Part shown: positions 4,828-36,543 of the stretch, piece by piece
Numbering within the stretch: position 1 is the first letter of the stretch
Layout of the letters: each line of letters opens with the position of its first letter
Assembly: GCA_009733575.1 (NCBI GenBank)
Contig: ML769486.1
Coordinates: 1 to 64,000, forward strand
DNA from: Gymnopus androsaceus JB14
Taxonomy: Eukaryota > Basidiomycota > Agaricomycetes > Agaricales > Omphalotaceae
Direction: 5' to 3'
DNA: 64,000 nt
Made by a program: the position numbers and the translations under genes
Notes under the pieces: model-generated
What the model was told of the DNA's origin: nothing
Database searches by the model: none
The model's input: only the letters and a program-made list of their open reading frames with translations

Positions 4828-7800
4828 TTAGCCGAAGAATCGGCGTATCAGCATGGCAGTAGCTAGTAGCTTGCAAATTTTGTAATGCTCATGTTTATGC
4901 GAAAAATCAAAAGCAGTAAATCCATCATCAGTCTGTGCGTTCACATTTGCCCCTTTTTCCAAGAGGTAATGCACAATTTCCAGATGACCATTTTGAGCAG
5001 CAATTATAAGGGGGGTTGAATTTCTCAAACCAGGAATATTCATGTCTGCCCTAAAATTTAGTAGAACCATTTTGGGATGCTAGTCTTAAAGCAGTGGAAC
5101 CATTCTCATTTTGTGCATTTACATTGGCCCCATGGTCCAGCAGGAGAGAAACAATATCAAGATGTCCTCTTTGAGCAGCAATAACAAGAGGAGTAGTTTT
5201 GTGAAAGCCTGGGAGATCTGGATCAGCCTCATGGTCAAGTAAAATTTTGACAATTGTGACATGACCATTCTGGGATGCTTGTCTTAAAGCAGTGGATCCA
5301 TTTCCAGCTGGGCCATTTACATTTGCTCCCCTGTCCACAAGGAAGGAGACAATATTCAAATGCCCATTTTGAGCAGCAATTACAATAGCAGTTCCACTTT
5401 GGATTGATGTAATATCCATGTCTGCCCCAGAATTGACCAGAAGCTTGACAATTTCAAAATGGCCATTTTGTGAGGCTAATCTCAAAGCTGTGGAACCAGC
5501 TTCATTTTTTGCATTCACATCTGCCCGATGCTCAATCAGGATAGAAGTAACATCCAAATGACCTTGTTGTGCAGCAATTATAAGTGGTGTGTATTTCCTG
5601 AATCCAGGAATATCCTTTTCTGCTCCATGGTTCAGCAAAAGCTTGACAATTTCAAAATGGCCCTCCTGTGATGCTAGTCTCAAAGCAGTACTACCATATT
5701 CATTTTGTGCATTCACATTTGCCCCATTCTCAATCAGGATGGAAACAACATCCAAATGACCTTGTTGTGCAGCAATTATAAGTGGTGTGGATTTCTTGAA
5801 TCCAGGAATATCCTTTTCTGCTCCATGGTTCAGCAAAAGCTTGACAATTTCCAAATGGCCCCCTTGTGATGTTTGTGTCAAAGCAGTACCATCATATTCA
5901 TCTTGTGCATTCACATTTGCCCCATTCTCAAGCAGGATGGAAACAACATCCAAATGACCTTCTTGTGCAGCAATTATAAGTGGTGAGACTATTCCTGGAA
6001 CATCTATATTTGCCCCATGGTTAAGTAAGAGCTCCACACTTTCAAAATGACCATTGCATGACGCTTGAGTCAAAGCAGGATAACCATCTTCATCTTGTGC
6101 GTTTACATTTGCTCCATTCTCAATCAGTAAGGAGGTAATGTCTAGATCTCCATCGTAAGGCAGCAGTTAGAAGTGGAGTGTATTTTCTGAATCCTGACAA
6201 TCTCCTTGTCTGCCCCATGGTTCAGCAAAAGCTTGACAATTTCAAAATAGTCATTTTGTGCTGCCAGTCCGAACATAGTGTCACCATGTTCAGCTTGTGT
6301 TTTCCGCCCTATGAACTGCCGCACTTAATGCTGATCCATACAATCCTCCTTTGGCATTTACATTTCTTCCATTCACCAGCTGCTTGACCATATCTTGGAG
6401 TCCACACCAAGCAGCATAATACAATGGTTGAGGCATAGCCCAGCTCTTCTGTTTCCTTTCAAAACTCGCTAGTTTCAAGCAATTAATATATGTGGTTCCA
6501 CCTGCTTGGATTATCTTAAAGGCTTTCTGATATACATTTTCACTGTTGCCCCTTTTTGCATGCTTATACCAGTGTTGAGCAGCGTATCTAGAGATCGGAT
6601 ATTCCTCATTCCATTGCACAACATCTGCTATTTCTGTATTGAACAGTAGCAGATATGCCAAGGAGCTTTCTGCTATTAATCTGTGACTCAAATATTCATT
6701 CATGTGGAACTGTGATGCTGTAGTGTTCAAATTTGATTTGAGGTGTTCAGATAAGAGAAATTCCCTGACAGATGTATGTGCTAGCTCCACAGTATTTCTG
6801 TTGTGGTCGACATGTATAAGTGTTGCACCAAGGAAGGTGATACGTTCTGGATCAACTCGGTACTTCTTTTCAAATCCAATTCCGTCATCCTCTCTTACAA
6901 AAGCAATGACTTCCCCTAGTGCATCCAGTGTTAAAGGTTCCATTGAAAAGCAAAGCCACTGAAGAACCTGCTTTGTGTCCTCAATGCGAGAGGCTTCGAT
7001 TGATTGAAGTGCTTGAATATACGTATCATTCAGATTCGCAGGAAGTTGATTCAAAACAGAATCAACTGCCTTCAGACCTATGCATGATTGCAGAGCAATC
7101 AATTGACAATCAACCCAGCGGAACCTAGCATAGCAATCAGGATTTAATCAGGATGACTATTCAACCAGGAATAATTTTGAGACTCACATTCCATTTGCCC
7201 TTCCAGTTAGACTGTTTACAATTTGACTTTTCTCCTCGTCACTATGTTGACCGAATGCATTGTCATTCTTCATGGTATAATCCAGGAAGATTTCCACATC
7301 TGTGTTTACATTTTCTTTATCAATCAGAACAACTTTTGAACAAAGTTGCTCCAATTCACGGGCATAAAAAATATGTGGTCGACTTGCTATGAGCATATGC
7401 AAATGGGAGTATGCCACTGTGCTAAGCTCCTCCATAAGTTGGAACAGAGGCTTAAAGCTTTGAGTCTCCATTTCATCAAGTCCATCGATTATAACAAATA
7501 GTGAATTTACTTTGAGAATTGAAATGACGTCTTTTAAGGTAGCTATCAACTCTCTGTCACTTGGCTTGCTTTTGAAATTCTCATGAATATTATAGAGTTT
7601 CCATATAGCCAAATATATTTCTTCTTGCATGGTTGTAGAGAGCAGCTGTGATAAAAGAGTTGAGACTAGGTTATTGAAATTTTGTTTGGATGCATCTCTA
7701 GAATCAAAAAAGTAGAATGCCACCAATTGGTTTTCATAGGCATCCAAACCTCTTAAATCGTTGATTACAGTGGATCTTTAAAAAAATGATTAGTGTGCTT

Positions 7801-8533: not shown

Positions 8534-9642
8534 CACACCGCCAATGATTATACTTCAGTCAGGCTGAAGTACTTTGGGAAATGAATTATTTCAGTACGTA
8601 AGACAAATGTACTTTTTCATACAAGTAGATAAAATAAATATTTCAATGAACTTACGAAGGAATTACATCCAGACCCTCTGAAATTTAAATTTTAATCAGT
8701 TATCTGTAAGGATGGACACGAGTCCAGCTCCTTAACAGGTACCGGCAGGTAAACCTGTGGGAATACCGGCCGGTATTTTAACCTGCGGGTCCCGGTACCG
8801 GTTTCCCATGGGTTATGCAGGTTGCAGGTCGCAGTTTCGCTCAAAGTTGGCAGGTTTACCTGCAGGTACCTGTGGACCTGGAATACTAGACACTAAAAAT
8901 TAGTCCATTTACAAATAAATTTGGTATAATTGTGACTGCAGTTTGATGTAGGGCTACTTTGTAGTGATACCTATGCCATTTTAATATAAAACATGTACTT
9001 ATTCATTTAAATTTGTGAATTTATAGGCAGGTATAAATAGTGGTGCAGGTTTGCAGGTACCTGCAGGTAAACCTGCACAGGTCTTGTGCAGGTCGCAGGT
9101 CAAGGGTTTGGATGCCCAGGTACCTGCACCACAGGTGCAGGTTTACCGGGACCCGGAGTCATGTCCACCTTTAGTTATCTGAAAGAACATTTTTCAATTT
9201 AGCTCTGAAAGCGATAGTTTTGATGTAGACTGAATACTTTTATTTCACAATAAGTGTGAAAGTAACTATTTCGAAGAACCTTTAAACTGGTTCCCGAAAG
9301 ACAATACTTCGATTCTCGGGCCGGACCGGGCCGCCGCCAAACCGCACAGCGAAAGGCAATCTATTGAATTGTTTTTCGAAACAATTACTTTTACTCTTAT
9401 TGTGAAAGCAGGGCTTTCAAGTCCTCATTGAAACTATTGTTCTTAGAGTCCAATTGAAAGCTTTCCTTTTGTACATCTATATAAGGTTCTAAATTCAGAA
9501 TGTCGGAATTTAATTTATTCTCTAATCTATTGAAATATACCTCTTCTGTATTTGTCTGAAAAAGTACGCTTCATATATGGATTGAATTTATTTATTTCCC
9601 ATTATGCTTCAGCTTGACTGAAGCATAATTATTGGCGGTGTG
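8534..9642. mobile_element. TIR element, about 1.1 kb, containing a nested MITE
   Basis: The left end CACACCGCCAATGATTATAC and the right end (reverse complement CACACCGCCAATAATTATGC) form matching terminal inverted repeats. Each is followed by a short CTTCAGTC-GGCTGAAG-type palindrome. Similarity continues inward for about 100 bp at lower identity. No transposase was seen, so the element is non-autonomous. No convincing target-site duplication was found. Confidence 0.65.
8707..9172. mobile_element. hAT-like MITE, 466 bp, with 9-bp target duplication
   Basis: Direct repeats AGTTATCTG at 8698-8706 and 9173-9181 flank a segment whose ends are inverted (AAGGATGGACACGAGTCC against AAAGGTGGACATGACTCC). 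An 8-9 bp duplication fits the hAT superfamily. The interior is dense in repeated CAGGTAAACCTG, CAGGTACCTG and GCAGGT words. It lies inside the larger TIR element, so it inserted later. Confidence 0.75.
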
Positions 9643-28004: not shown

Positions 28005-28266
28005 CGTTAGAGGAAAGAAGATGTTATGCACAAAAATTGATGCTGTGCATGCGAATTGTGTCAAGAGACAACAATATAGATTGAGCGCTTGAGCACCCGC
28101 TGATAGAAAAGGCTTAATTACAATGAACAGTTTGCGTTTGACACCGAATCTGATCAAAGGAAAGGCAATGTATAAATGTACATCCTTTACTACGTATTCC
28201 CTCAATCCATCTCAACATTGCTGTCCTCTTTTTCTTCCGAGTCGCTGCTGGTAATATCCTCCTCAT

Positions 28267-28474
28267 TGTAACGCCTCTGATCCCTGATCAGCAGGACCTT
28301 AGTCTCTACAAGTGGCGGCGCATTCCCGCGCCTGCCAATATTCTATATTATAATTATTATATTGTAGACAAACCTTAGCTTTAAACCATCACCTCGCAAG
28401 TATACCTGAAATAAATCCAGTAGTACTCGTTGGCGTGATACTAAGGCTCTAGGCTCCATTTAGGAGCCGTTACA
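28267..28474 (+). repeat. 5' LTR (208 bp)
   Basis: Begins TGTAACGCCTCTGATCCC and ends GGAGCCGTTACA. It is the same length as the repeat at 31961 and differs from it at about six positions. The first and last seven bases are inverted (TGTAACG/CGTTACA). Confidence 0.9.
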
Positions 28475-28515
28475 CTTTTTTGAGTACTAGTGTACTCTTC
28501 AGCGATCCCCGCGAG

Positions 28516-31500
28516 ATGCCGAGTCATTACGACGACTCAGGTTATGGTGACGTGGTAAATGTCGCCAATAACCATTATTGGAATTGCTAAGGCAATTCCA
28601 GCAATGACGATGTTTTTAACATCGTCAACCGTTCAAAAAAGATTCACAGCAGTGAATCTTACAACAGTGACCGTTTTTGTATCACTGGTGCCAGCGCATG
28701 CGCGGGCACAAATGATTTTAAGCCTGACTCGCGTTGGGCTGGAAATAATAATGTTCAGTTTGAACATTCAAATGTGGCCTTGACCACGCTTGAATCACCG
28801 ATTGGGTCATCCCAATCCGGTGATTTCTTTCAATTATGTGCAACAGCACAGTCCACAAGCCAAAAGGCTCTCTGTGAGATTTCGAAGCTCAGGGAAATGT
28901 TAGCAAACGCTAACATAACACAGTCCACTCCTCCGGGAGACGTTCCATACTGGAACGTTAGAGATATTGACGGCGATTGGCAGCCCAGCTACAGCTGGAC
29001 AGGCACAAAGCCTTGCAGTCATCCCCGCACACCTGGGGGTGAATATTCACCTCCAGGTGACTCTCTGACACCTCTGGTGTTCTTGTCTCCCACTCCCGCT
29101 CCTCTTCCTCATCTCCCTTCGTCTCCCACACCTTCCCCTCGTGTCCAAGAAATTGGAAATACCCAATTCCCTGACCAGGGAATTAAAAATTGGGCTGGAA
29201 ACAATGTCAATGTTTATAACATTGTCAAACCAAGTCATTTTCATGACTCGGTGCCCCAGGATGCGTCCCGCATCATACCCCAGCTTGACTCTAGTCAAGC
29301 TAAACGTCCATATGTTCATTCCGAACGTTTTGGCGCAGCTCCCGTTGCGCCTTATTCCCAAATTGGATTAAAAACCCAATTTGGGAAGACACCGAGTCAT
29401 TTTCACGACTCAGTGCCCCATAATGCATCTTGCATTGTGGAAAACACACCCCAGCTCGACTGCAGTCGAGCTGACACTCGAAACGTTCATGCTGAATGTT
29501 TTGGCGTGACTCCAGTTACGCCTAATTCCCAAATTGGATTAAAGCCCCAATTTGGGAATTCTTCTCAATTGTGTGCTTCTGCACATGAAACGAGCCTTCA
29601 TGATGTGAGGAACATCATGAAGAGCTTGTCCCAGCTCGACAGGAGTCGAGCTGAACATCCTCACGTTCCCCCAGAACATTCTGGCATGGTTCTAGCCCCG
29701 CCAAATTCCCGGATTGGAGTAAAAACCCAACTCAGGAATTTTTCTCGATCATGTGGTTCTGCACACGATTCGAGCCCCCATGATGTACCCTGCATCATGA
29801 AAAGCTCACCCCAGCTCGATCCTAGTCGAGCTGATTGTTGATACGTTCAAATTGAACATTTTGGTGCAGCTCCGGCTACACCAAATACCCAAATTGGGTC
29901 AAATACTCAATTTGGGAAGTCACCAAGTCGTGAAAACGATTCGGTGACCCACAATGCTCCCCGCATTGTGCAAAACCAAGTTCAGCTTGACTATAGCCAA
30001 GCTGGACCCTTCTATGTTCTTACGGAACATGTAGGTGTGGCTCCGGCTGCACCCAATTCCCAAATTGGGCTAATACCTCAATTTGGGAATTCTAGTGCCA
30101 GTGTACACGCTGGCACAAATGAGCTGCGACCCAATTTACGTTGGGCTAATGGCAATGCTATTTGCACTGCCAAACCAAGCAACTCGGCACTTCAATCACC
30201 AATTGGGTCATCCCAATTCAATGATTTCTTTGAAGCATGTGCGAAAGCACAGGCTGCGAGCCAAAAGGCTCTCCATGAACTTTCAGAGTTCACGGAAAAT
30301 TTTCAGCTCGACCCACATCGGGCCAATGGCAATGTTTGTTACATTGCCAAACCAAGTCGTTTTCACGACTCGGTGTTTAATAAGGCCAAGGACACTGTCC
30401 CAGGCATGGTTCAGCTTGACTCTGGTCAGGCTGAACATCATAGTGTTCCATGCAAACATCTTAGCATGGCTAATGCCATGCTCACGCACAGTTTTCAGCT
30501 TGACTCTGGTCAAGCTGAGTATCCAAACGTTCTACCTGAACGTTTTAGTGTGGCTAACGCCACACTCAAATCACCGTTTGGGTTACCCCAAAACTTGTTA
30601 CCTGACCAAGTCCATCCTAGGATTGACTCGGGAGGACAAACTCATTGAGGAGAGGACCCACATGGGAACGTCAGAGATACTGACGGAGACCGATGGGCTG
30701 ACATTGCTCAGACAGGCCTAAGACCTTCCTGTCATCCCCGCTCATCTGATGGTGAAATTTCACTGCCAGATGTCTCTCTGACACTTCCCGTGTCCTCATC
30801 TCCCCCTCCCACCCTGGTTCCTCCCCCTTGCATCGATCCACATCCCGAATCAACTCAAGAGGAGAGGTTCACCCCATGGAAGGCCATGCCTTCCAAATTG
30901 ACGGTGGTACATGGTACCACTGTAAATCCATGTTTTGGCACAACCAGGCCCTTGAAAAGGGATTGGATGGACCGAGTCGCTGTCCAGCGACTCCATGACC
31001 AAGATCTCCAAGAAATTGGAGATTCACAATTCCCTGACCAGGGAATTCTTTTTAATATCAATGGGTACCCCATTGATAGACTCCTGGACAGTGGGAAAGA
31101 CCCACCGTCCAGAAATTGTGGGGGGCAAATCTGTCGTAAACTACGATGGATTTCTGAAACTCACGGAGCAAGCTCAAAATGTGTACAACGTTCACAAGCA
31201 AGCTTCTTTTCTCTTTGAGAGGGGGAGGGCCAGTGTAGAAATACACTAGCTCACTCTACATCTCAAGTATGTGAGATTAAAAATCCCTCGAAACACGATT
31301 CGCCAGAGGATTGGGTATGGTACATCCAGATGTACCCCAACCAATGTCCTACTGGCATAAAGTATGAACACAATGATCATACTCTTACCCGTAATGTACG
31401 TGGATGGTTACTAGTAAGTAACCATGCCCCAGTTATAGCAGCGGGGACTTCCAAGGTGAAGCAGCATTGCTTCACCTTACGAACAGCGGAGTTGTTCACA

Positions 31501-31767
31501 ACTCCAGGACTTTATGCATCCATTACCGGATGTGATGAGACAAATATTGTCTCGAATATTTCAACATCACCATATACTGGTGCCATTGATAATGCTACGT
31601 TGTATGATGTAGCCTTGTTTTACGCCTCCCAAGGCATTACCATTGAAATGGGAAAAGACATAACCGTCTTTTCCCTTCAGTGGTTGACTATGTTCCGTAC
31701 AACGGACCCTAGTCTTGGATGCGAGTTACGTGCAACACATGACCGTGTTCTTCACTCCCATTTCTGA
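28516..31767 (+). CDS. Long gag-position reading frame made of hairpin-encoded repeats
   Basis: From MPSHYDDSGYGDVVNVANN at 28516, a single frame runs about 1,080 codons to a stop at 31767. It is broken only by stops at about 28588, 29839, 30646 and 31216. The middle repeats a peptide of about 55-60 residues with blocks such as PSHFHDSVP, QLDSSQA, NSQIGLKPQFG and VHSERFG. The last part (about 31220-31767) is non-repetitive (SPEDWVWYIQMYPNQCPTG). A Pro-rich stretch lies at about 29080-29150. By position it would be a gag, but it matches no gag motif I know. The frame persists although the DNA is almost all hairpin, so the protein may be real, or hairpin words with lengths fitting codons may keep it open by construction. 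The stops imply this copy is dead. Confidence 0.5.
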
Positions 31768-31905
31768 ATACATGGCACGCTACCATGCATTCAAAATCCC
31801 AGGACATATTCACGACACGCTATTGTGAATATGTTCCCAACTTCAACTATCAAGTTGAAGTTCTCACAAATATGCTCCAGCTGGGTTGACACGCTATCAA
31901 ACCAG
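28520..31905. repeat. Chain of dozens of different short hairpins
   Basis: Adjacent inverted repeats with 6-12 bp stems and loops of about 3-8 nt follow one another with little spacing. Examples checked by eye: 28580-28599, 28606-28626, 28639-28660, 28750-28768, 28897-28916, 28940-28958, 29030-29059 (30-nt near-perfect palindrome), 29165-29184, 29208-29224, 29282-29301, 31319-31336, 31404-31425, 31453-31478, 31490-31505, 31537-31553, 31568-31582, 31650-31675, 31771-31787, 31805-31833 and 31839-31862. Stem sequences differ from hairpin to hairpin. The LTRs and the Pro-rich stretch at 29080-29150 lack them. Confidence 0.85.
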
Positions 31906-31960
31906 TTGGGGGCCCCTTTCCTTTTCGATTGAACTGTAGGCTCAATCTGGCTGGGGAGGG

Positions 31961-32168
31961 TGTGACGCCTCTGATCCCTGATCAGCAGGACCTTAGTCTC
32001 TACAGGTGGCGGCGCATTCCCGCGCCTGCCAATATTCTATATTATAATAATTATATTGTAGACAAACCTTAGCTTTAAACCATCACCTCGCGAGTATACC
32101 TGAAATAAATCCAGTAGTACTTGTTGGCGTGATACTAAGGCTCTAGGCTCCATTTAGAAGCCGTTACA
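31961..32168 (+). repeat. 3' LTR (208 bp)
   Basis: Begins TGTGACGCCTCTGATCCC directly after GGCTGGGGAGGG and ends GAAGCCGTTACA. It is followed by the CTCAT target duplication. Confidence 0.9.
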
Positions 32169-32639
32169 CTCATACAATGGATAGTCACTGTCATAGATAG
32201 GAGGAGAGGTGGGCCTTTTGACATTGCTCTCCGCATCCTGCTCCTGAAACCAACGAGTCCTGAAATCAACCTTGCCGTGAATGTTGAAGGCTACTATCTC
32301 AATATCATCTTCAACATCCTCCTCATCATCGCTGACTTGCAACTGATCCAGGGAGAGTCCATTCGAGCTTCTGACACCGTTAGCTGTAAAATTCAAAAGA
32401 TCAGCACAAATATAAATGCACTCAAACTCAGCTCACTGTTTCCGTACAACCTTTGAAATTCAGCAGTTTTAAGCTCATCACGCACTTCAGGCTGCCCCAT
32501 TTTATATCTTCTTAGATAGTCCAAAGTGTAACAATCCAGTAACTAATATGATCAAAATCCACAGGAAATCCAGGGCCCTGGAATCCATACGCCCTGCCTG
32601 GAATCCATACGGCTAGGACCTCTGGCACCCTTTGGATAT

Positions 32640-33480
32640 GGATTCCATGCACTAGTAAATATAGTAGTGTATGGATTCCATGCATGTTGCATGGAATCCA
32701 TGCACTAGTAAAAATAGTAGCATATGGATTCCATGCATGTCGCATGGAATCCATGCACTAGTAAAAATAGTAGGGTATGGATTCCATGCATGTCGCATGG
32801 ATTCCATACACTGGTAAATATAGCAGTGTATGGATTCCATGCATGTCGCATGGAATCCATGCACTAGTAAAAATAGTAGTGTATGGATTCCATGCATGTC
32901 GCATGGAATCCATGCACTAGTAAAAATAGTAGGGTATGGATTCCATGCATGTCGCATGGATTCCATACACTGGTAAATATAGTAGTGTATGGATTCCATG
33001 CATGTCGCATGGAATCCATGCACTAGTAAAAATAGTAGGGTATTGATTCCATGCATGTCGCATGGATTCCATACACTGGTAAATATAGTAGTGTATGGAT
33101 TCCATGCATGTCGCATGGAATCCATGCACTAGTAAAAATAGTAGTGTATGGATTCCCTGCATGTTGCATGGAATCCATGCACTAGTAAAATAGTAGTGTA
33201 TGGATTCCATACATGTCGCATGGAATCCATGCACTGGTAAAAATAGTAGGGTATGGATTCCATGCATGTCGATGGATTCCATACACTGGTAAAATATAGT
33301 ACTGTATGGATTCCATGCGTGTCGCATGGAATCCATGCACTAGTCAAAATAGTAGTGTATGGATTCCATACATGTCGCATGGAATCCATGCACTGGAAAA
33401 ATAGTAGGGTATAGATTCCATGCACTAGTCAAAAATAGTAGTGTATGAATTCCATGCATGTCGCATGGAATCCATACACT
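32640..33480. repeat. Left tandem array of hairpin units (about 58-60 bp each)
   Basis: Roughly 14 units of TATGGATTCCATGCATGT, then CGCATGGAATCCATGCACTA and a GTAAAAATAGTA linker. Each unit is itself a hairpin (ATGGATTCCATG against CATGGAATCCAT). Some units contain point changes or lost bases. Confidence 0.9.
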
Positions 33481-35589
33481 ACTATTTCACTAGTGCCACC
33501 TGATATTACCCCTTGATGGTAACATTACATACAATTGATAGGATTATCTCTGCTATGTAAAGATAGCGTCAAGAGTAATAGGGTAGATATAGCGAGATAC
33601 CTGTAAAGTACTAGTAAATTTACTAATGAGTTCACTGAGGGTAAGACTTGCTGCGTGCATTCGAACCCCAGTAGTGATATATAATTTATATAGGTACGTG
33701 AAGACGCCTTCGGATCCCGGAAATCATGACCAACTCCCTGCCGAAGTCAATCAATGTCACTACCAATCATATGCATATGTCTCCCGCTCATTGATCCCTC
33801 TCTCCCCGCCACCTGATATTACCCAATTATGGTTACATCCCGGTTTCCCGCTCACTGTCCCCGCCTCCCCGCCCATTATGACAATGGGATATGTAGTATC
33901 CCTACTTGTAAAATTAGATAAATAGACACGTAGTAAATAATGACGACCATTGAGTACTTGAACAGTCCACATGACCTGACTGCTAAGGTTCATAGGATGC
34001 ACGGTTTCATGCTAAAAAAAAAAATCGAGCGCCGCCATTATAAAGCACGGAAGCATGCTAACATACCTTATCTTTGTCTGCTCCGTGAAGGAAAACACTT
34101 CATTACCATTTATCGCCTCTAAAATGGACGTTCGAAGATGTCCGGAAATGCGGTCCGTAGGCGCTTAGCTCGTACTCAGTGCTCGAAACGACGAGCTTGA
34201 GCAGTCAGATGATTGTGGATATGTCCCGGACCTATCGGCAACACATCTATAAGGTCTATCGTCATTCCACCAGCTGTTAATTTGGATATTCAGCGGTTAA
34301 AAAATAGGATATTTGTCATTTTGTGTACTGGTTACCCTAAAAACTCGAGTTCATTGCAGATAACAGTGAACTCAAGGAGGAACTAGAACATCTTGCAACT
34401 TATAATGCTATTACCATGATCTAGTAGTGTAGTTGACTTATATACTACAGAACTGTGCTTGTCTGAATACTTGAAGGCATGGTAACAAGTTTCGGTGCAG
34501 TTTGGATACTACATCCATTGACAAAACCTACTTTAATGTTGTATGTAGCCCGCAATTATTTCTATGAGTGTAAGTTTACCATATATGATAGCGATACATG
34601 TCCATAACATGTTGCTCAAGTCTGAGGTGCCACCTATTTCACCTTCTCCCTTGAGCCCATTGCTTCATGCAATGAGCTTGGTGAGTCGATGTCATATCCT
34701 TGGATAGCAATGGGATCAACAGCTTAATTAATGATCTACTGGATTCAAAATGTAAAATATACTGTCTAGATGTGTTCCCGATAGGTCCGGGACATATCCA
34801 CAATCATCTGACTGCTCAAGCTCGTCGTTTCGAGCACTGAGTACGAGCTAAGCGCCCACGGACCGCATTTCCGGACGTCTTCGAACGTCCAATTTAGAGG
34901 CGACAAATGGTAATGAAGTGTTTTCCTTCACGGAGCAGACATAGATAAGGTATGTTAGCATGCTTCCGTGCTTTATAATGGCGGCGCTCAATTTTTTTTT
35001 TAGCATGTAACCGTGCATCCTATGACCTTGCAGTCAGGTCATGTGGACTGTTCAAATACTCAATGGTTGTTATTATTGACTACGTTTCTATTTATCGAAT
35101 TTTACAAGTAGGGATACTACATATCCCATTGTCATAATGGGCGGGGAGGCGGGGACAGTGAGCGGGAAAGCGGGATGTACATATGTCATGGCGGTGACGT
35201 GAGAGGGGTGGTGATGTACTGTCTGATGGCATGAGTGACGGTAAGTCGGTCATGATATCCGAAGGCGCCTGCACAAGCCTTTGGATTTCAAACCCGCGCA
35301 CCCAAGTCTTAGCCTCAGTAAACTCATTAGTATATTACTAGTACTTTACAATGTTTCGCTAAATCTGTCCTATTACCCTTAACGCTATCTTTACATAGCG
35401 AAGACAATCCTATCAATGCTATGTAAAGATACCATCATTGGGTAATATCAGGTGGTGGGGAGAGAGGGATCAATGAGCGGGAGGCATATGCATATGATTG
35501 GTAGTGACATTGATTGACTTTGGCAGGGAGTCGGTCATGATTTCCGGGATCCGAAGGCGTCTTCAGCTTACCTTATATATTATCTATCA

Positions 35590-36412
35590 CTCATACACTA
35601 CTATTTTTACTAGTGCATGGATTCCATGCAACATGTATGGAATCCATACACACTATTTTTACTAGTGCATGGATTCCATGCAACATGCATGGAATCCATA
35701 AACTACTATTTTTACTAGTGCATGGATTCCATGCAACATGCATGGAATCCATAAACTACTATTTTTACAGTTCATGGTTCCATGCAACATGCATGGAATC
35801 CATACACTACTTTTTTACTAGTGCATGGATTCCATGCAACATGCATGGAATCCATACACTACTATTTTTACTAGTGCATGGATTCCATGCAACATGCATG
35901 GAATCCATACACTACTATTTTTACTAGTGCATGGATTCCATGCGACATGCATGGAATCCATACACCACTATTTTTCTAGTGCATGGATTCCATGCGACAT
36001 GCATGGAATCCATACACTACTATTTTTACTAGTGCATGGATTCCATGCGACATGTATGGAATCCATACACTACTATTTTTACGAGTGCATGGATTCCATG
36101 CAACACGTATGGAATCCATACACTACTATTTTTACTAGTGCATGGATTCCATGCAACACGTATGGAATCCATACACTACTATTTTTACTAGTGCATGGAT
36201 TCCATGCAACACGTATGGAATCCATACACTACTATTTTTACTAGTGCATGGATTCCATGCAACACGTATGGAATCCATACACTACTATTTTTACTAGTGC
36301 ATGGATTCCATGCGACATGTATGGAATCCATGCACTACTATTTTTACTAGTGCATGGAATCCATACGCTACTATTTTACTAGTGCATGGATTCCATGCAA
36401 CATGCATGGAAT
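35590..36412. repeat. Right tandem array of hairpin units
   Basis: About 14 units in inverted orientation to the left array (TAGTGCATGGATTCCATGCA, then ACATGCATGGAATCCATACA and CTACTATTTTTAC). Unit variants form runs, such as several successive units with CAACACGTATGG, which suggests local expansion within the arm. Confidence 0.9.
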
Positions 36413-36543
36413 CCATATCCAAAGGGTGCCAGAGGTCCTAGCCGTATGGATTCCAGGCAGGGCGTATGGATTCCAGGTCCCTGGATTTCCAGTGGATTTT
36501 GATCATATTAGTTACTGGATTGTTACACTTTGGACTATCTAAC

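What the first reader, a model, noticed from the sequence alone, without database searches (positions are those of the whole stretch)
28516..31905. LTR element whose interior is a continuous chain of different short hairpins
Between two 208-bp LTRs with an exact CTCAT duplication, about 3.4 kb of DNA is built of successive inverted repeats (6-12 bp stems, short loops) that differ in sequence from one to the next. I checked about 20 by eye, and the pattern covers nearly the whole interior except a Pro-rich stretch. This is not a tandem repeat or one foldback. It looks like a grammar of self-complementary words. The RNA would be an extreme string of stem-loops. Possible roles (all inference): packaging or dimerisation of the RNA, resisting or feeding RNA silencing, or a by-product of template switching in which each stem is copied back from its partner.
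Basis: seen in the sequence. Interest (0 to 1): 0.93.

Follow-up and report, generated by a model that had tools for sequence, protein, structure and literature searches.

The report
Retrotransposon lineage written in hairpins
A virus-like jumping element in a mushroom, and relatives that still carry their own copying enzyme, spell their genes so that the strand can fold into an almost unbroken string of short hairpins, which suggests that folding is maintained along with the protein code.

Summary
The 3.5-kb interior of this LTR element holds 17.2 perfect hairpins/kb (stem >=6, loop <=10; shuffles 1.9, flanks 2.3-2.8), and 13 of 13 tiles fold far better than shuffles on both strands. The host is inferred to be Gymnopus androsaceus JB14. 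The interior is one conserved, here broken, reading frame; its last domain belongs to an ORF that follows Gag-like and Pol genes in Ty3/gypsy-type relatives. Those relatives are hairpin-rich too: one RT gene has 19 hairpins in 1200 nt against 2.7 in same-protein, same-codon shuffles (0 of 200 reach), while control frames stay near baseline. Complementarity stops where a folded strand needs a 3-4-nt loop; sense-strand GNRA/UNCG loops are enriched; third positions in stems are more conserved in 6 of 10 comparisons; a CACGCTA-loop hairpin recurs after the stop codon. Against RNA selection: G.U is no commoner than A.C. Best reading: a lineage-wide demand on single-strand, probably sense-RNA, folding; rival: palindrome-perfecting template switching. 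Six literature searches showed nothing like it.

The parts
28262..28266 (.). target-site duplication CTCAT, left
28267..28474 (+). 5' LTR, 208 bp, TGTAACG...CGTTACA
28421..28428 (+). LTR stretch complementary to the 8 nt at 28482-28489; candidate self-priming partner
   Evidence: lead only
28482..28489 (+). candidate primer site GAGTACTA, just after TTTTTT behind the LTR
   Evidence: in C283 a 5-nt match at the same offset
28475..31960 (+). interior: chain of 72 non-overlapping hairpins
28516..31767 (+). one reading frame of 1083 codons from ATG, interrupted in this copy by four in-frame stops; some sibling copies stay open for longer stretches
   Evidence: pN/pS 0.46-0.63 in ten subfamily comparisons
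29060..29164 (+). Pro-rich stretch, hairpin-poor
29281..30089 (+). five diverged ~175-bp tandem units carrying related hairpins with changed letters
31219..31764 (+). C-terminal domain homologous to ORF3 of Gag-Pol-ORF3 relatives
31762..31796 (+). hairpin with loop CACGCTA (1 of 3)
31804..31834 (+). hairpin with CACGCTA in the loop (2 of 3)
31877..31909 (+). hairpin with loop CACGCTA (3 of 3)
31949..31960 (+). purine-rich stretch GGCTGGGGAGGG before the 3' LTR (polypurine-tract-like, by eye)
31961..32168 (+). 3' LTR, 208 bp
32169..32173 (.). target-site duplication CTCAT, right

Best explanation
The window holds a copy of a non-autonomous LTR retrotransposon family of (inferred) Gymnopus androsaceus. 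It is related to a Ty3/gypsy-type lineage with the order Gag-like ORF - Pol - ORF3. In the pieces of that lineage that I could read, the coding sequence, RT included, is written so that the single strand can fold into a dense chain of short local hairpins. Shown: density above same-protein synonymous controls in the Gag-like ORF, RT, ORF3 and the window frame; an excess that falls from spacers of 3-5 nt to near 1 beyond 20 nt; pairing that stops where a 3-4-nt loop is needed; stem third positions more conserved than the rest in 6 of 10 comparisons; an excess of compensatory changes in 4 of 13. Inferred: the folded strand is the sense RNA (GNRA/UNCG tetraloops clearly enriched on +, at most weakly on -) and the folding is kept by selection, probably because a bead-string RNA packages well or is hard for antisense or small RNAs to invade. 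Individual hairpins turn over over long times while density persists.
For: Synonymous shuffles: RT 19 vs 2.7, 0 of 200 reach; Gag-like ORF 18 vs 3.1, L049 ORF2 24 vs 4.3, L050 ORF3 15 vs 5.1 (maximum 13 of 60 shuffles), window pieces 15/7/10/22 vs 3.5/1.3/1.6/4.8. Inner pair at spacer 3/4 is WC in 9 of 40 and 16 of 65 (0.23, 0.25), at spacers 6-8 in 0.68-0.74. Spacer spectrum: 11-32x at 3-5 nt, 2.2-5.2x at 9-12, 1.6-1.7x at 13-20, 0.8-1.4x beyond. GNRA+UNCG loops, stem >=6: plus 8 of 46 vs 2.3, 1 of 4000 shuffles; minus 4 of 46, 1074 of 4000. Third-position identity stem vs other: window->L049 27/47 vs 26/87 (p 0.003), window->L050 28/55 vs 22/76 (p 0.017), four of six ORF3 directions p 0.0012 or less. 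Compensation: L049->L050 18 vs 8.9 (2 of 2000), L049->L054 16 vs 6.8 (0 of 2000). CACGCTA loop in three families with different stems. Relatives carry RT between the Gag-like ORF and ORF3.
Against: G.T and A.C occur about equally: 677 vs 654 single changes among siblings, 12 vs 17 in one-mismatch stems, 15 vs 11 in commonest states and 9 vs 15 just outside stems, 21 vs 17 and 22 vs 15 between L049 and L050. RNA selection should favour G.T. Energy excess is as large on the minus strand, and minus-strand tetraloops are not flat at stem >=5 (8 of 80, 199 of 4000 shuffles reach). In four ORF3 directions amino-acid identity is also higher in stems, so part of the third-position effect may be regional. 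Two ORF3 directions show no effect (p 0.19, 0.67), nor do the two RT directions. RT hairpins are not shared with the sister RT (WC kept 28 vs 23.8, 164 of 2000; 22 vs 19.3, 281 of 2000). L050 ORF3 has no stem >=8 (0 vs 0.5). No expression data; one species.
Confidence: 0.5

Rival explanations
1. Mutational ratchet: during reverse transcription the enzyme stalls at chance imperfect inverted repeats, switches to the nascent strand and copies the other arm, so hairpins become perfect. Purifying selection on proteins limits how far it goes. The chain is then a by-product.
For: Stems are Watson-Crick with no G.U preference and no strand bias. Perfect stems >=8 are commonest in the window frame, where I suppose the protein is least constrained: window pieces 5.5-10.4/kb, RT 4.2, Gag-like 2.6, ORF3 0-2.1. 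Positions turn over between RT lineages. A folded strand needs a loop, so fits this too. Template switching is known to perfect quasipalindromes in E. coli (PMC7202029, abstract and opening of the introduction read).
Against: It does not predict stems more conserved than loops and than the rest (divergence among siblings stem 0.071, loop 0.108, other 0.093), nor sense-strand tetraloops, nor the shared CACGCTA loop. Among siblings I saw no clear clustered arm rewriting; the variation looks like CpG decay and module swaps.
Confidence: 0.27
2. Selection acts on the single-stranded cDNA (or on both RNA and cDNA), for example to help strand transfer or shield cDNA.
For: Hairpin energy excess is similar on both strands; no wobble bias; loop limit.
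Against: RNA-type tetraloops are enriched mainly on +. Nothing points to a cDNA step.
Confidence: 0.13
3. The hairpins are binding sites in double-stranded DNA or come from insertion of many small palindromic elements.
For: Dense short palindromes.
Against: Palindromes do not close to the centre, stems differ from one another, and they sit inside open reading frames of relatives without breaking them.
Confidence: 0.03
4. Side effect of protein sequence, codon bias or base composition.
For: Some hairpins persist in shuffles that keep protein and codons.
Against: Observed counts are about 3-7 times the synonymous-shuffle mean.
Confidence: 0.02

Closest known systems
Ty3/gypsy LTR retrotransposons (RT fragment matches Ty3 chains 4ol8, 7q5b)
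   Same: relative C164 has RVT_1 and integrase domains downstream of a Gag-like ORF; the 5' LTR of C283 is similar to the window's (65% over 166 columns)
   Different: hairpin-dense coding sequence, an ORF3 after Pol, and a window family without Pol
Non-autonomous LTR elements (TRIM, LARD, TR-GAG; names recalled)
   Same: LTRs, TSD and no pol in the element
   Different: the interior is a conserved reading frame with a domain shared with ORF3, not short or non-coding
[quoted passage not shown]
   Same: folding far above shuffles along the whole stretch
   Different: only local hairpins, little or no excess beyond a spacer of 20 nt, and in an LTR retrotransposon
Quasipalindrome template switching (PMC7202029, abstract and opening of the introduction read)
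   Same: exact complementarity of arms, symmetric between strands
   Different: here stems tend to be conserved at third positions, and there are many different hairpins along a lineage
Helenus/Ajax non-autonomous LTR elements (PMC10886601, passages read)
   Same: non-autonomous LTR elements, some in Agaricomycetes
   Different: those are described as small-RNA-gene-derived (title and abstract start); no tRNA and no Rfam match reaching its gathering score here

Membership tests
LTR retrotransposon | paired LTRs beginning TG, ending CA, with a target-site duplication | tested here: met
Ty3/gypsy, autonomous | own Gag-Pol in the window element | tested here: not met
   no Pfam domain in four frame pieces; none listed at C104 in the RVT_1 search (150 of 285 candidates scored)
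Ty3/gypsy lineage, non-autonomous relative | homology to a Gag-RT-IN element | tested here: met
   C-terminal domain 41-46% aa identity to ORF3 of C164 and C283; C164 has Gag-like 139364-138795, RVT_1 136530-136054, ORF3 domain 131820-131341; integrase
Gag protein | match to a known Gag family model | tested here: not met
   no Pfam Gag match for the Gag-like ORF of L049; the name rests on position and recalled resemblance
chromovirus | chromodomain after integrase | tested here: not met
   no Pfam hit in the 96-aa piece after integrase of C164; resemblance only by eye
Tf1-type self-priming (recalled) | LTR stretch complementary to the primer site | tested here: inconclusive
   8-nt match in window, 5-nt match at same offset in C283
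LARD/TRIM (recalled) | non-coding interior | tested here: not met
   conserved frame, pN/pS 0.46-0.63
GORS | folding energy beyond shuffles along the genome | tested here: met
   13 of 13 tiles
GORS | long-range pairing as well as local | tested here: not met
   ratio 0.8-1.4 beyond spacer 20, up to 120
Quasipalindrome template-switch product | strand-symmetric, wobble-free complementarity | tested here: met
Quasipalindrome template-switch product | observed arm-rewriting events | tested here: inconclusive
   none clear among siblings
Host silencing or packaging function | effect on small RNAs or on particle RNA | not testable with these tools
   needs experiments

The most novel reading that the evidence does not exclude
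A whole Ty3/gypsy lineage of a mushroom, reverse transcriptase included, has co-evolved its protein code with a second code: stretch after stretch is self-complementary to its near neighbour, so the RNA is a string of short hairpins. The second code is kept by selection while individual hairpins turn over, serves RNA packaging or escape from RNA silencing, and is inherited by non-autonomous derivatives together with a CACGCTA-loop hairpin that acts as a recognition signal.
Probability: 0.42. Interest if true: 0.9.

Novelty: new variant of a known kind. Interest (0 to 1): 0.74.

Why it matters
If true, a retrotransposon lineage carries structure-level constraint across coding DNA at a density that my searches did not find described, readable from sequence alone. 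It would give a natural test of what dense local RNA structure does for a mobile element (packaging, shielding from small RNAs) and of how far protein and structure codes can be overlaid. If the rival is true, it would show a reverse transcriptase that rewrites its own genome into palindromes.

Tried and rejected
Compensation among siblings first looked strong (61 of 638 Watson-Crick pairs with a WC-to-WC double change in at least one of 40 copies). Many of these are C-G/T-A changes at CpG sites, and across 57 such sites matched and mismatched states both occur. I read this as decay and do not count it as covariation; the table alone cannot separate the two. The re-lettered hairpins at 28800 and 30201 resemble the unit near 30571-30592 of the same element and may be swaps between tandem units, so I do not count them either. 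Of 285 hairpin copies with three or more stem changes, 131 kept and 154 lost their pairing.

RNA-only selection by G.U tolerance predicted G.T over A.C; not found. Partner site for the CACGCTA loop: three TGGCGTG and one TAGTGTG in the window element, two of them in the LTRs, but none in C283; dropped. tRNA genes: none in the window; two weak Rfam hits far below their gathering scores, taken as chance. Viral collection: 128 pattern matches, no relative of the RT. Protein searches: the window domain found four G. androsaceus proteins and one JGI protein, ORF3 five and one; these searches reach only relatives sharing exact 5-residue words. The third protein search and both structure predictions were not used.

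Discarded: the two rows comparing the window with the tail of L049 were out of frame; redone. One search timed out and was replaced. My note says three stops; the reading is four.
Full report
What is there. The element spans 28267-32168, with 208-bp LTRs (6 differences) and an exact CTCAT duplication. The genome has 83.3 Mb in 934 contigs. Three contig lengths given for Gymnopus androsaceus JB14 proteins (104481, 82809, 18284) are those of C242, C301 and C749, so the organism is inferred. An LTR search scored 40 of 118 candidates and an interior search 40 of 68, so copy number is a lower bound. I fetched 40 stretches of the family.

Perfect hairpins (stem >=6, loop 3-10) number 60 in the interior, 17.2/kb, against 1.92/kb in 20 dinucleotide shuffles and 2.3-2.8/kb in flanks. 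13 of 13 tiles of 250 nt fold better than shuffles on both strands. A non-overlapping set has 72 hairpins. There is also a diverged tandem series, so the chain is partly modular.

The interior is a gene. Frame 28516-31767 is interrupted here by four in-frame stops. Some siblings show longer open stretches in the same frame (498 aa in L014; 705 aa in C56). pN/pS is 0.46-0.63 in ten comparisons of L014 or the window with L009, L011, L022, L027, L031, L032, L034, L044 and L045, 0.47-0.61 in three close pairs, and 0.8 for L044 against L045. CpG decay may bias this, so I call it moderate evidence.

Relatives. The last 182 codons gave 128 matches at E<=1 in the genome, several in long open frames at 37-46% identity. 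In C283 a Gag-like ORF precedes a 795-aa ORF whose end is the homologous domain, with no room for Pol between them; its 5' LTR is similar to the window's (65% over 166 columns), but I saw no matching 3' LTR in the stretch held. 'Gag-like' rests on position and recalled resemblance; Pfam gave no Gag match. A search with it (40 of 40 candidates scored) and an RVT_1 search (150 of 285 scored) place Gag-like ORF, RT and ORF3 domain in order on one strand within about 7-11 kb in C164, C645, C87, C17, C238, C49 and C546. The C164 RT matches Ty3 chains; integrase domains follow. So the window family and the C283 type lack Pol, while others have it. That the former are mobilised by the latter is inference.

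The hairpins belong to the lineage. With protein and codon usage kept, the C164 RT fragment has 19 hairpins in 1200 nt against 2.74 (sd 1.73, 0 of 200 reach); two integrase pieces have 6 against 2.0 (5 of 200) and, in a piece with a stop, 3 against 0.9 (3 of 200). The Gag-like ORF has 18 against 3.1, ORF2 of L049 24 against 4.3, ORF3 of L050 15 against 5.1 (maximum 13 of 60 shuffles); window pieces 15, 7, 10 and 22 against 3.5, 1.3, 1.6 and 4.8. For stems >=8, L050 ORF3 has none (0 against 0.5). A sister lineage, C78, has 5 in 474 nt against 1.2 (1 of 200). Controls: Copia-like pol 10 against 6.9 and gag 1 against 1.6 in L022; five more frames (a Copia-like one in the window, part of the L022 pol, a frame of L023 that holds one stop, an ankyrin-type ORF and a further window ORF) have 4, 5, 2, 5 and 3 against 1.6, 2.4, 1.4, 2.9 and 2.5, with 12, 12, 80, 22 and 90 of 200 shuffles reaching. 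All five lie above their means but none is comparable. The Copia and ankyrin labels are by eye. Over all held DNA, family DNA has 9.39 hairpins/kb (stem >=7, loop <=10), the rest 1.83/kb, unrelated palindromic arrays included.

What acts on it. Complementarity falls to chance at the pair that would leave a loop under 3 nt (9 of 40 and 16 of 65 at spacers 3 and 4; 26 of 61 at 5; 0.68-0.74 at 6-8), so the agent is a folded single strand and not a double-stranded palindrome. The excess is local: 11-32x at spacers 3-5, 2.2-5.2x at 9-12, 1.6-1.7x at 13-20, 0.8-1.4x beyond. On the sense strand GNRA and UNCG loops are enriched (stem >=6: 8 of 46, 1 of 4000 shuffles; minus 4 of 46, 1074 of 4000. Stem >=5: 13 of 80, 0 of 4000; minus 8 of 80, 199 of 4000. 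Stem >=7: 6 of 25, 6 of 4000; minus 0 of 25). Numbers are small, and loops were collapsed only when loop and three flanking bases on each side were identical.

Conservation. Between families I compared 13 directions. Compensatory changes exceed the permuted expectation in L049->L050 (18 vs 8.9, 2 of 2000), L049->L054 (16 vs 6.8, 0), L054->L050 (9 vs 4.3, 8) and L050->L049 (13 vs 7.1, 19). Not clearly so in window->L049 (6 vs 3.2, 102), window->L050 (12 vs 7.5, 78), L050->window (7 vs 5.0, 122), L049->window (3 vs 1.9, 550), L050->L054 (14 vs 9.2, 79), L049->L051 (2 vs 0.4, 85), L054->L049 (8 vs 7.0, 764) and both RT directions (7 vs 5.3, 494; 6 vs 5.2, 732). The directions share sequences and are not independent. 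Third codon positions in stems are more conserved than outside hairpins in 6 of 10 directions at p<0.02 (window->L049 and ->L050, L049->L050, L049->L054, L054->L050, L054->L049), not in L050->L049, L050->L054 or the two RT directions. In the two window directions amino-acid identity is not higher in stems (19/50 vs 42/91; 22/58 vs 35/80), so protein conservation does not explain it there. In the four ORF3 directions it is higher (102/160 vs 203/434, 77/133 vs 195/427, 64/99 vs 241/494, 50/99 vs 226/476), so part of the effect may be regional; among codons with the same amino acid, identical codons are still commoner in stems (71/101 vs 97/196, 53/75 vs 95/187, 36/62 vs 113/235, 38/48 vs 109/218).

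The awkward fact. Stems do not tolerate G.U more than A.C: 677 vs 654, 12 vs 17, 15 vs 11; between L049 and L050 21 vs 17 and 22 vs 15. A 3:1 preference is rejected by 12 of 29 (p 0.0001) and not clearly by 15 of 26 (p 0.07). Much of the sibling signal is probably decay after insertion at CpG. This is the best evidence for template-switch perfection of palindromes, which is why that rival keeps weight.

A shared 3' hairpin. After the stop codon, CACGCTA in the loop of a hairpin occurs three times in the window, twice in L050 (plus one CACGCTC), once in L049, and twice each in L051 and L052 (relatives of L049), with different stems between families. A constant loop on changing stems is how recognised RNA hairpins look; what recognises it is unknown.

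Literature. The listings showed no report of hairpin-chain LTR elements or of this property in G. androsaceus, which required six terms together, returned no paper. The library lacks most subscription journals. PMC3950689 (abstract) describes genome-scale ordered structure and evasion of innate sensing in vertebrate viruses; PMC7202029 (abstract and opening of the introduction) template switching; PMC10886601 (passages) other non-autonomous LTR elements.

Verdict. Real, found in every coding part of the lineage that I could read (weakest in ORF3 of L050), ordered by a folded single strand, and most likely maintained by selection on sense-RNA folding, at about even odds. One inferred species, no expression data, one RT fragment of 1200 nt and one of 474 nt are the main limits.

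Noticed in passing
window 32520-36490: A separate foldback-type element: about 15 copies each of a 53-bp palindromic tandem unit form long inverted ends (32638-33424 and 35592-36364), with a second inverted pair inside seen by eye (about 33880-34250 and 34780-35150). The same left end recurs in L037 from about 5640.
   Followed up: partly
window 8720-9150: Cluster of palindromic GCAGGTACCTGC-like repeats, hairpin-rich, not similar to the LTR family by the mask.
   Followed up: no
window 5051-7147: ORFs that look like ankyrin repeats by eye, with a 198-bp tandem repeat at 5411-6269.
   Followed up: no
L022 3119-7912; L023 3239-8406: Other elements nested between the LTRs of copies of the family; Copia-like by eye, with a 1240-aa frame in L022.
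   Followed up: partly
window 28421-28428 and 28482-28489; L053: Possible self-priming: the stretch after TTTTTT behind the LTR is complementary to an LTR stretch, with different letters at the same offset in C283.
   Followed up: partly
L056 (C78:203256-203729): RT of a sister Gypsy lineage also looks hairpin-rich (5 vs 1.2) but shares no more pairs with C164 RT than expected.
   Followed up: partly
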